DNA of 34,519 bases from Anaerolineae bacterium (GTDB taxonomy: Bacteria > Chloroflexota > Anaerolineae > J102): assembly GCA_027002405.1 (NCBI GenBank), contig JALWZT010000333.1:1-34519 (forward strand), given 5' to 3'. Position numbers and translations under genes: made by a program. Positions 9,647-21,840 of the stretch are shown piece by piece. The notes beneath the pieces were generated by a model that was given only the letters and a program-made list of their open reading frames with translations, was not told the origin of the DNA and did not search any database. How positions within the stretch are numbered: the stretch's first letter is position 1; each line of letters begins with the position of its first letter.

Positions 9647-9694
9647 ATGAACTCGTCGCAAAAAGTCATTCATCTCACGACCACTGTTCCGTAA
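9647..9694 (+). pseudogene. 15-codon gene relic cut off by a repeat
   Basis: ATG at 9647 opens a 15-codon frame (MNSSQKVIHLTTTVP) that stops at TAA 9692-9694, exactly where a TTCCGTAAATAGGAT repeat begins. The strong promoter and AAGGAGG upstream argue that a real gene once started here and lost its body when the repeat arrived. An alternative frame from ATG 9628 gives 41 codons but translates the repeat and has no ribosome site. The relic is too short to name a family. It could instead still serve as a leader peptide. Confidence 0.5.
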
Positions 9695-9747
9695 ATAGGA
9701 TCAGGATTAGGATTGAGGATTGTCAGGCCGAGGTTAGGCGCGGGCAC
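9686..9747 (+). repeat. Partial composite repeat (AGGATT block), copy 4
   Basis: TTCCGTAAATAGGATCAGGA opens a run of AGGATT-type words followed by TTGTCAGGCCGAGGTTAGGC, matching the conserved left block of the 200-bp repeat seen at 32510 and 17848. The right block is absent, and the sequence passes straight into the TNATCAG heptamers. Confidence 0.7.
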
Positions 9748-9805
9748 GAGTAATCAGTGATCAGTTATCAGTAATCAGTGTTCAGTCTTCAGTGTTCAGT
9801 GTTCA
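9748..9805. repeat. Heptamer repeat (TNATCAG / TGTTCAG words), copy 2
   Basis: Four TNATCAG words identical to 6834-6865 continue into four TGTTCAG/TCTTCAG words. The exact 7-bp period and gradual drift from one word to the next suggest slippage or copying of a 7-bp unit. Confidence 0.85.
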
Positions 9806-10029
9806 GTAGCGCCGAGGCTAGAAACAACGCCCCTGCGGGAGTAGCCGGAATTATCCGGCGCCGTTTTATAGCCCGGCGACTTCATCGCCGGGCGGGCGTG
9901 GTGGACGACACTTCGCTCGGTTAAACCACGCCAAATGTCTGAGACGCACACCGTGACCACTTGCCACGTGCCACCTGCAAACCTGCAGACTGCGTCCTAT
10001 TTTCATCGTTATGTGGTGAGCTCTCGCTC

Positions 10030-10221
10030 GTGGTGACTGTTCAAAAAAGAGGAACAATTACCCTTGACAATCTTCCCTTGCATGCAGGGGATAAGGTCGA
10101 GATCATTATTTATGAAACGGGTTCGGCCCTTGAAGTCAGATATCCGCTTCGAGGTAAACCGGTGCAATATCATGAACCCTTCAAAAGTGTCGCCGAGGAT
10201 GATTGGGAAGCTTTCCAATGA
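10030..10221 (+). CDS. Antitoxin-like protein with degenerate context
   Basis: The conserved part begins VVTVQKRGTITLDNLPLHAG and ends in YPLRGKPVQYHEPFKSVAEDDWEAFQ-type sequence. I recall this signature from small antitoxins paired with PIN toxins in Cyanobacteria and Chloroflexota. A GTG at 10030 (or 10033) gives a 63-residue protein of normal size. The ATG at 9961 would add residues translated from repeat DNA and was rejected. The stop overlaps a second start (ATGA at 10218), the classic antitoxin-toxin junction. The downstream frame runs only six codons before a MITE interrupts it, so no toxin is present. The gene lies inside the split between a histidine kinase and its regulator. Confidence 0.6.
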   Translation: MVTVQKRGTITLDNLPLHAGDKVEIIIYETGSALEVRYPLRGKPVQYHEPFKSVAEDDWEAFQ

Positions 10222-10235
10222 TTGTTAAGAAAATC
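10218..10235 (+). pseudogene. Start of a second cistron interrupted by the MITE
   Basis: ATG ATT GTT AAG AAA ATC overlaps the antitoxin stop by ATGA and runs straight into the left end of the MITE. If the element and one target copy are removed, the frame continues for only 15 codons (ending GTT GAT ACC ATT TGA). The toxin body was therefore already missing, or has been lost by a further deletion. Confidence 0.45.
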
Positions 10236-10435
10236 GTAACTATACAGCTCCTTCTGCAAGACGTTTCTACCACGCACGAAGGCACAAAGGCCCCCCTCCG
10301 GCTCCCCCCGCACGCAGGGGGAGAGGCAAAGACACGAAGAAAATGTTTATCTTTCCCTTTGTGCCTTGGTGTCCTTCGTGTCCTTAGTGGTTTTTGCCTT
10401 GCTATGAAAGGGTACGTGTATAGTTACAGAAAATC
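10228..10435. mobile_element. MITE copy A with 10-bp terminal inverted repeats and 8-bp target duplication
   Basis: The element proper (10236-10427, 192 bp) begins GTAACTATAC and ends GTATAGTTAC. It is flanked by a perfect direct repeat AGAAAATC (10228-10235 and 10428-10435). The interior is a hairpin of about 7-bp words: CACGAAG GCACAAA on the left, and CTTTGTGCCTTGGTGTCCTTC on the right as the reverse complement. A GC-rich palindromic insert (10289-10327) sits in the left arm. It encodes no protein. Its ends match copy B at 21566-21718. A GTAA terminus and an 8-bp duplication are, as I recall, typical of the IS66 family, so an IS66-type transposase elsewhere may move it. Confidence 0.9.
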
Positions 10436-10464
10436 ATTGAATACCCTTACGTTGATACCATTTG

Positions 10465-17647: not shown

Positions 17648-17848
17648 AAAGCAGTCATCACGAACGGCAGTTCGCCGATACGAATGAAAACGTCTCGCGG
17701 CCAGGCTGGCGCGGGAAGCCGATTTCGTCAAGCGTCAAACGTCATGCGTCATGAGTTGACGTTTCACGTTTTACGTTTGACGTTCGTTGGTGCCTCGCTC
17801 AACGTTGTCCTGATGATCTCAATCCTAATCCTGATCCGAATCCTATTT
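17648..17848 (-). repeat. Composite repeat of about 200 bp, copy 1
   Basis: Read on the minus strand it has three parts. A left block starts AAATAGGATTCGGATCAGGA and runs to GTTGAGCGAG. A central imperfect palindrome is made of CGTCAAA/CGTGAAA words. A right block starts CGGCTTCCCGCGCCAGCCTG and runs to GATGACTGCTTT and includes the hairpin CGGCGAACTGCCG. Left and right blocks are nearly identical to those at 32510-32711, but the centre differs. It encodes nothing credible. Confidence 0.9.
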
Positions 17849-19150: not shown

Positions 19151-19348
19151 AACGTCTTGCCACGAAGGCTCGAAGGAACGAAGACAATGCAGGTTTGCAG
19201 GTCTGCAAGTCGCAAGTGGCAAGTCCTTCTACCTTCTAGCAGCAACGCTTTTCACCTGCCACCTGCCACTTTTCCCCTTCGTGCCTTCGCCTCTCCCTCG
19301 CGTGCGGGAAAGCCGGAGGGGGCTGTCGTGGCTTTTGACCTTGCTACG
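19151..19348. repeat. Hairpin element of the CACGAAG family without intact ends (copy C)
   Basis: The interior resembles MITE copies A and B: CTTGCCACGAAGGCTCGAAG on the left, and CTTCGTGCCTTCG plus CGTGGCTTTTGACCTTGCTA on the right. Nested inside are GCAGGTTTGCAGG/CACCTGCCACC words forming an inner hairpin, and a GC-rich module (19289-19323) shared with copy A. The GTAACTATAC ends are missing. It fills the 324-bp gap between the aminotransferase and the ABC ATPase. Confidence 0.75.
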
Positions 19349-19407
19349 TTAGTAGTCACCTATTGTACCGGCTCCCATCCCATTCGCCAAACTCCCCCTC
19401 CTTGTCG

Positions 19408-20515: not shown

Positions 20516-21520
20516 TTATATTTCAGGCAGGAAGCGACGCATCACCGCCAGATTTTCGATGGCTTTGCCCGCGCCCAGGGCCACCGCGGCAAGGGGATTC
20601 TCCCCCACATAGCAGGGCACGCCGGTCTCTTTGGTGAGCAGATTGTCGATATTGCGCAACTGAGCCGACCCGCCGGTGAGCACAATCCCCTGGTCAATGA
20701 TATCCGACGCCAGCTCGGGCGGCGTCTTTTCCAGGGTCTGCTTCACGGTACTCACAATCTGGCGCAGCGGCTCGGTCATGGCCTCCATCACCTCTTCCGA
20801 AGTCACGGTAATGGTCTTGGGCAGCCCTGTCACCTGGTTTCGCCCCTTGATCTCCAGACTCAATTCATCCTCCAGAGGCAAGGCAGAACCGATCTGGATT
20901 TTCAGTTCCTCCGCGGTCTGATCCCCAATAATCAGGTTATACTTCTTGCGAATATAATTCACAATAGCCTGGTCCAGCCGATTCCCTCCCACGCGGATGC
21001 TGCTCCAGACCACAATATCATTCATAGAAACCACCGCGGCCTCGGTGGTCCCCCCGCCGATATCCACCACCATATTGCCCGTAGGCGTGTGGATGGGCAG
21101 TCCCACACCATACGCCGCGGCCAGAGGCTCGGGAATCAGATAAGCTTCCTTGGCCCCCGCGCTGATAGCGGCATCGTACACCGCGCGGCGCTCCACGCTG
21201 GTGATCCCTTTGGGAGAACTCATCATCACCTGGGGCCGGAAAAGGGGATTCCGTCCCACCACCCGGCGGATAAAATGACGCAGCATGGAGGTGGTCACGA
21301 AATAATCGGCAATCACACCATCGCGCACTGGCCGGAAAACACGAATGCTTTCGGGCACCCGGCCGATCATATCCGCTGCGTCCCGGCCCACTGCCACGAT
21401 TTTGTTATCCCGGGCCGAGATGGCCACCACACTGGGCTCTTGCAGCACAATTCCTTTGCCCGAAACATAGACCAGGATATTCACAGTGCCTAAATCGATG
21501 CCAATTTGTTTTTCGAACAT
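20516..21520 (-). CDS. mreB: Rod shape-determining actin homologue MreB
   Basis: MreB forms membrane-bound filaments that direct lateral wall synthesis. The 334-residue protein begins [20 protein letters not shown] (phosphate 1 motif). It contains PSVVAI, the phosphate 2 motif [12 protein letters not shown], and the adenosine motif [15 protein letters not shown]. Length and motifs are normal. ATG 21520 was chosen because the conserved N-terminus starts there; GAGG lies about 9 nt upstream. No mreC or mreD follows, so it is a lone mreB/mbl-like gene. A MITE (copy B) sits 38 bp upstream of the ATG, so transcription must start within or very near the insertion, or come through it from the distal side. 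Confidence 0.96.
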
Positions 21521-21557
21521 ATAATAAAGCCTCAATGGGAAAATAGCGACTACGAAC

Positions 21558-21726
21558 GTAGCAAGGTAACTATACAGGTATCCCACCCAACGCTTTGCCA
21601 CGAAGGCTCGAAGCTTTTCGAAGACACGAAGAGAACATTTTATTTTCTCCTTCGTGCCTTTGTGCCTTCGTGTCTTCGTGGTTTTCTCCTTGCTTTGGAA
21701 GGGTAGGCGTATAGTTACGTAGCAAG
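21558..21726. mobile_element. MITE copy B with 10-bp terminal inverted repeats and 8-bp target duplication
   Basis: The element proper (21566-21718, 153 bp) starts GTAACTATAC and ends GTATAGTTAC. It is flanked by perfect direct repeats GTAGCAAG (21558-21565 and 21719-21726). The interior is a long hairpin of CACGAAG-type words: TTTGCCACGAAGGCTCGAAG on the left and CTTCGTGTCTTCGTGGTTTT on the right. The right terminal 35 bp closely match copy A, but copy B lacks its GC-rich insert. The pre-insertion site reads GACTACGAACGTAGCAAG and resembles the end of copy C, so it may have landed in older repeat DNA. It lies in the promoter region of mreB. Confidence 0.92.
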
Positions 21727-21782
21727 ATAAAGCTATCAGGATTATAGTGCAAAACCAGGTGGAGCAAAAATTCCCTCGGCAC

Positions 21783-21810
21783 GAAAAAGCCGGACGTAGA
21801 AACGCCCGGC
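21783..21810 (-). terminator. Rho-independent terminator of the ATP synthase operon
   Basis: On the minus strand GCCGGGCG-TTTCTA-CGTCCGGC forms an 8-bp stem with one G-T pair, followed directly by TTTTTCG. It lies 31 bp after the atpC stop. Confidence 0.85.
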
Positions 21811-21840
21811 AAAATGGGTATGGTCGCGTCAAAGGAACCT

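What the first reader, a model, noticed from the sequence alone, without database searches (positions are those of the whole stretch)
21558..21726. A real MITE (copy B) with 8-bp target duplication in the mreB promoter region
The sequence shows GTAACTATAC...GTATAGTTAC ends directly flanked by GTAGCAAG on both sides. That is the signature of transposition, so the hairpin is mobile DNA rather than a random palindrome. It lies 38 bp before the mreB ATG and must affect or supply its transcription or leader. The ends read outward as TATAGT, a -10-like hexamer. GTAA ends plus an 8-bp duplication are what I recall for the IS66 family, suggesting an IS66-type transposase acts in trans.
Basis: partly seen in the sequence, partly recalled or inferred. 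Interest (0 to 1): 0.82.

Follow-up and report, generated by a model that had tools for sequence, protein, structure and literature searches.

The report
IS66-type MITE in mreB leader
A 153-bp piece of "hitch-hiker" mobile DNA, one of at least 50 related copies in this uncultured Anaerolineae bacterium, has jumped into the untranslated leader of the cell-shape gene mreB and was almost certainly moved by an IS66-family transposase whose own ends it carries; it is a new family of an ordinary kind of element, not a new promoter.

Summary
GTAACTATAC...GTATAGTTAC ends bound a 153-bp hairpin (21566-21718) flanked by GTAGCAAG on both sides. It is a MITE. The same genome holds 117 exact copies of the 10-bp end (2 for the reversed control) and 50 paired elements; 24 of the 47 typical ones have perfect 8-bp flanking duplications, none at 5-7 or 9-12 bp. 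The IS66 guess holds: eight contigs stop about 125 bp inside a longer element with identical ends encoding the start and end of an IS66 transposase, and four copies re-pair across contigs by 8-bp duplications. A sister species carries nearly all of that element: one ORF, PF03050/NF033517, ISBst12 group. The promoter reading does not hold: the mreB -10 conserved in seven genomes of the genus lies upstream of the insertion, so the MITE sits in the 5' leader. Four relatives have short leaders (38-41 nt) without it. Predicted ribosome-site accessibility is unchanged. Beyond the finding, the inner palindrome (CACGAAG core) is shared by MITEs with other GTAACT ends and occurs without such ends in distant Chloroflexota, suggesting ends change around a conserved core. 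Overall: a new member of a known kind.

The parts
21558..21565 (.). Target-site duplication GTAGCAAG, left copy
21566..21718 (.). MITE copy B, 153 bp; ends GTAACTATACAGGTAT (left) and GTAACTATACGCCTAC (right, reverse complement); inner palindrome with CACGAAG core
   Evidence: nearest copies 95-96% identical in the same genome
21719..21726 (.). Target-site duplication GTAGCAAG, right copy
21741..21746 (-). Conserved mreB -10 box (TATAAT within TGC[A/T]CTATAAT); upstream of the insertion with respect to mreB
   Evidence: columns TGC and CTATAAT invariant in 7 genomes of the genus
21789..21810 (-). Intrinsic-terminator-like hairpin after the ATP synthase epsilon gene
   Evidence: hairpin also seen in several relatives
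20516..21520 (-). mreB (starts [14 protein letters not shown]); the ORF list extends it to 21832 only because the MITE happens to be open in this frame
10228..10235 (.). Target-site duplication AGAAAATC of copy A, left
10236..10427 (.). MITE copy A, 192 bp, same family
10428..10435 (.). Target-site duplication AGAAAATC of copy A, right; 26 bp before the response-regulator ORF at 10462
19338..19357 (.). Remnant end of a related MITE with different ends (ACCTTGCTACGTTAGTAGTC); copy B's target (CTTGCTACGTTCGTAGTC) is 17/18 identical to it

Best explanation
Copy B is a non-autonomous MITE of an IS66-family (ISBst12-group) insertion sequence. Its outer 10-16 bp are those of the IS, so the IS transposase is inferred to bind them, cut and insert the hairpin, making an 8-bp target duplication. 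It landed between the conserved mreB promoter and the mreB start codon, so it is inferred to be transcribed as a stable hairpin in the mreB leader. Shown here: the family, the ends, the 8-bp duplications, the IS66 transposase coding at both ends of the partner element, and short leaders without the element in four relatives. Inferred: that this transposase moved it, and that its effect on mreB is small because the promoter is intact and ribosome-site accessibility is predicted unchanged.
For: 117 exact 10-bp ends in the 4.32-Mb genome against 2 for the reversed control. 50 distinct paired elements; of 47 typical ones, 24 have exact flanking repeats at 8 bp, none at 5-7 or 9-12, and 0 of 200,000 mismatched flank pairings match 8/8. 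Eight contigs end about 125 bp inside a longer element with the same ends; four copies re-pair across contigs by 8-bp duplications: C354/C12 TAGTCTTT, C115/C120 CCAGCAGG, C178/C331 GACTGATT, C145/C308 CACTGATC. C107 shows the IS inserted into its own left end at TTTACTGC, and the other copies are uninterrupted there. The own-genome C-terminal 40 aa hit NF033517 transpos_IS66 (E 4e-4), and 39 of 40 residues match the sister species (my count). Sister species G001 carries a single ORF matching PF03050 (2e-45), zf-IS66 and NF033517 (284 bits, cut-off 180), with the same left end; its right end on another contig pairs by duplication TTGCGAAA. MITE B shares 16 bp with the IS right end (GTAACTATACAGGTAT). 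Leaders of G001, G006, G005 and G008 are 38-41 nt without the element, against 220 nt here. Conserved -10 upstream. Unpaired probability around the mreB start 0.58 with and 0.56 without the element.
Against: The transposase body is not in this genome's contigs (PF03050 finds none); only its ends are, presumably because the identical copies collapsed in assembly. Only about half of the typical elements keep a perfect duplication; the rest are decayed or have lost the match. No relative is close enough to show the exact undivided CTTGCTAC target at mreB. No transposition or expression data exist.
Confidence: 0.94

Rival explanations
1. The MITE brings an outward promoter (TATAGT in its end) that now drives or boosts mreB.
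For: TATAGT matches 5 of 6 positions of the -10 consensus. Known MITEs such as Correia carry promoters (PMC10969869).
Against: No promoter-like site is found at the element's ends in either direction. The native -10 is conserved in seven genomes and remains in place upstream.
Confidence: 0.07
2. The inserted hairpin has become a real leader regulator of mreB, for example a processing site, protein-binding site or attenuator, and is kept by selection.
For: It lies in the predicted transcribed leader and folds at -59.9 kcal/mol. G007 and G002 also have long leaders with an unrelated palindromic insert. A Correia element downstream of the mtrCDE promoter is regulatory (PMC10969869).
Against: Among the relatives examined it is present at this site in this genome only. 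Ribosome-site accessibility is predicted unchanged, and the scan finds no intrinsic terminator at the end of the element on the mreB strand. The family lies next to many unrelated genes.
Confidence: 0.12
3. An ordinary REP/BIME-like palindrome or terminator; the flanking repeat is coincidence.
For: Strong palindrome; mostly intergenic (37 of 47 by a rough ORF call). The CACGAAG core occurs without GTAACT ends in distant Chloroflexota.
Against: Two dozen elements with perfect 8-bp duplications in exactly one register; shared ends with an IS; about 10 of 47 lie inside rough ORF calls.
Confidence: 0.01
4. A MITE moved by a transposase of another family that happens to use the same ends.
For: The IS66 body is missing from this assembly.
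Against: The same ends bound both termini of an IS66 transposase gene in this genome and in a sister species.
Confidence: 0.03

Closest known systems
ISBst12 group of the IS66 family, e.g. ISDge4 of Deinococcus geothermalis (PMC12898284)
   Same: Single transposase ORF; GTAACT-type ends (ISDge4 GTAACTGCTCAGCA); 8-bp duplication (CCTCGATG) seen on transposition.
   Different: The ends here read GTAACTATACAGGTA. Copy B itself has no transposase gene, and the partner IS is known only from its ends in this genome and nearly whole in a sister species.
Classical IS66 (tnpA/tnpB/tnpC), e.g. Frankia IS66 (PMC11946415)
   Same: GTAA ends, 8-bp duplications, DDE_Tnp_IS66 domain.
   Different: Classical ends begin GTAAGCG. 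The sister-species element has one ORF and no tnpA or tnpB between its ends.
Correia elements (NEMIS) of Neisseria
   Same: Short palindromic MITE of high copy number near gene starts; one lies just downstream of the mtrCDE promoter (PMC10969869).
   Different: Different ends and, from general knowledge, a TA duplication; Correia elements carry known promoters, none is indicated here.
Other MITEs in this genus with ends GTAACTGCT/GTAACTACT
   Same: Same CACGAAG inner palindrome and 8-bp duplications.
   Different: Different ends; in G007 an IS66 left end (GTAACTACTAAGGTAGCCCGATTCG) matches that MITE's end.

Membership tests
MITE | Short, with terminal inverted repeats and no transposase gene | tested here: met
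   153 bp, perfect 10-bp inverted ends; no transposase in the element
MITE | Many dispersed copies | tested here: met
   50 paired copies, 117 ends
MITE | Fixed-length target duplication | tested here: met
   8 bp in 24 of 47; none at 5-7 or 9-12
MITE | Ends shared with an autonomous IS | tested here: met
   10-16 bp shared with the IS66-type element
MITE | Demonstrated mobility in trans | not testable with these tools
   Needs a transposition assay
IS66 family (partner IS) | DDE_Tnp_IS66 transposase | tested here: met
   Sister species G001: PF03050 2e-45, NF033517 284 bits. Own genome: C-terminal 40 aa only
IS66 family (partner IS) | Ends starting GTAA | tested here: met
   GTAACTATACAGGTA at both ends
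IS66 family (partner IS) | 8-bp target duplication | tested here: met
   Four copies re-paired across contigs, plus one pair in G001
ISBst12 group | Single ORF, no tnpA/tnpB | tested here: met
   G001: ORF starts 52 bp from the left end and runs to the right end (stop inside the terminal repeat), read over two contigs. Not directly seen in the own genome
REP/BIME | Intergenic palindromes without target duplication or IS ends | tested here: not met
   Duplications and IS ends present

The most novel reading that the evidence does not exclude
The CACGAAG inner palindrome is a mobile 'cargo' module in its own right. It exists without transposon ends in distant Chloroflexota and has been captured repeatedly, or kept while the ends evolved, by different IS66 lineages. 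Each MITE subfamily would then wear the ends of its local transposase around one conserved core, implying selection on the core or repeated end exchange.
Probability: 0.3. Interest if true: 0.6.

Novelty: new member of a known kind. Interest (0 to 1): 0.4.

Why it matters
It ties a high-copy hairpin repeat of an uncultured Anaerolineae lineage to a specific transposase family, and it is an IS66/ISBst12 MITE family, a kind the 2024 review of prokaryotic MITEs does not mention (0 mentions of IS66). It shows that the shape gene mreB tolerates a 161-bp insertion in its leader, and it corrects the tempting promoter reading. The shared core under different ends gives a testable case of end exchange and transposase matching.

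Tried and rejected
Direct search for an IS66 transposase in the own genome: none; resolved by finding that contigs break inside the element. Outward-promoter idea: no support. Terminator role: no terminator-like site at the end of the element on the mreB strand. Rfam: no family; only a sub-threshold chance hit. Empty site for copy A by DNA search: swamped by a repeat family just upstream. Genome-collection scan for the paired ends: besides Anaerolineae it returned Bacteroidota and Butyrivibrio records with the same 10-bp ends but unrelated interiors and no matching 8-bp flanks, so the 10-bp end alone is not diagnostic. Literature: no paper prints the core sequence, and no IS66-linked MITE was seen in the papers found.

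Full report
Observation. The ends and duplications are exactly where stated, with a second copy, A, at 10236-10427 flanked by AGAAAATC. Chance is excluded within the window (4 sites against 0.23 expected), and the strand folds with z = -6.4.

Family. The window lies in a 4.32-Mb draft genome of 363 contigs. The 10-bp end occurs 117 times exactly, and its reversed control twice. After fetching the sites I paired 50 distinct elements, mostly 144-155 bp or 184-197 bp. For the 47 between 120 and 300 bp, exact flanking repeats occur at length 8 in 24 cases, at 5, 6, 7, 9, 10, 11 and 12 in none, and at 4 in two; random re-pairing of flanks gave 0 in 200,000. Copy B's nearest relatives are 95-96% identical over the full 153 bp. 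Named records with the same element, including perfect 8-bp duplications, belong to Anaerolineae metagenome-assembled genomes.

Transposase. PF03050 finds nothing in the genome. However, contigs C12, C107, C115, C120, C141, C145, C178 and C354, among others, stop about 125 bp inside an element with the same ends, as expected where identical repeats break an assembly. One end encodes MNLLQENRRLKQENAELRERLQ, the other ...EQFCTIRSYTSTMRKQGVNAWTALGSVFAGDLLLPETIPV*; the latter matches the end of the IS66 model NF033517 (E 4e-4). Four insertions re-pair across contigs by 8-bp duplications, and one IS copy is nested in another at TTTACTGC. In sister species G001 the left end is followed by one ORF with DDE_Tnp_IS66, zf-IS66 and NF033517 matches, and its right end on another contig carries the paired duplication TTGCGAAA. 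A single ORF between GTAACT ends with 8-bp duplications is the ISBst12 arrangement; ISDge4 (ends GTAACTGCTCAGCA, 8-bp repeat) is a published active example (PMC12898284).

Site. Gene order on the mreB strand is: ATP synthase epsilon gene, terminator-like hairpin, TGCACTATAAT, MITE, mreB. TGC and CTATAAT are invariant across seven genomes of the genus. The distance from TATAAT to ATG is 38-41 nt in G001, G006, G005 and G008, and 220 nt here, of which 161 are the MITE plus one duplication. The insertion is therefore in the predicted leader, and the -10 is intact. G007 (188 nt) and G002 (208 nt) carry an unrelated palindromic insert in the same leader, so the site tolerates insertions. The MITE RNA folds at -59.9 kcal/mol, but unpaired probability around the start codon hardly changes (0.58 with, 0.56 without). 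My reading is a nearly neutral leader insertion; effects on mRNA stability are possible and untested.

Core and ends. In the same genome a second set of MITEs has ends GTAACTGCTAACGTA/GTAACTACTAAGGT, the same CACGAAG palindrome, and perfect 8-bp duplications in at least ten cases. In G005, G007 and G008 a third set has GTAACTGCTCAGGTAGCC/GTAACTACTAACGTAGCAAGG ends, and in G007 an IS66 left end closely matches that end type. The core motif CTTCGTGTCTTCGTGG is patchy in the phylum: 7 of 400 sampled genomes, 53 exact copies in one of them; in the two distant genomes richest in it, the sites inspected show no GTAACT ends with a duplication. The simplest account is one MITE lineage whose ends follow changing transposases. 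A core that moves between transposons is more novel but not shown.

Own knowledge, not tested: Correia TA duplications and the general behaviour of repeats in short-read assembly.

Noticed in passing
10236-10435: Copy A lies 26 bp before a LuxR-type response-regulator ORF (10462) and has a perfect 8-bp duplication.
   Followed up: yes
19338-19357 and 21548-21565: Copy B's target sequence (CTTGCTACGTTCGTAGTC) is 17/18 identical to the end of a different, decayed MITE at 19338; B may have inserted into an old MITE end.
   Followed up: partly
9683-10056: A stretch of about 370 bp just upstream of copy A recurs at 78-100% identity at about 40 places in the genome, a separate large intergenic repeat family.
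   Followed up: partly
L190, L193, L199, L201-L203, L205, L206, L208, L209 (own genome): Second MITE subfamily with GTAACTGCT/GTAACTACT ends, the same inner core and perfect 8-bp duplications.
   Followed up: partly
L211-L226 (two distant Chloroflexota genomes): The CACGAAG core occurs in up to 53 exact copies per genome without GTAACT ends or duplications at the sites inspected.
   Followed up: partly
L124, L128 (mreB leaders of G007 and G002): An unrelated palindromic repeat (GTAATGCG/CGCATTAC type) sits in the same mreB leader; similar repeats are in the window near 17737 and 32588.
   Followed up: no
20516-21832: A mechanical ORF call extends mreB through the MITE in frame, so automatic annotation may give MreB a false N-terminal extension.
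   Followed up: yes
L137, L142, L144: Elements with the same 10-bp ends but unrelated interiors in Butyrivibrio and Saprospiraceae records.
   Followed up: no
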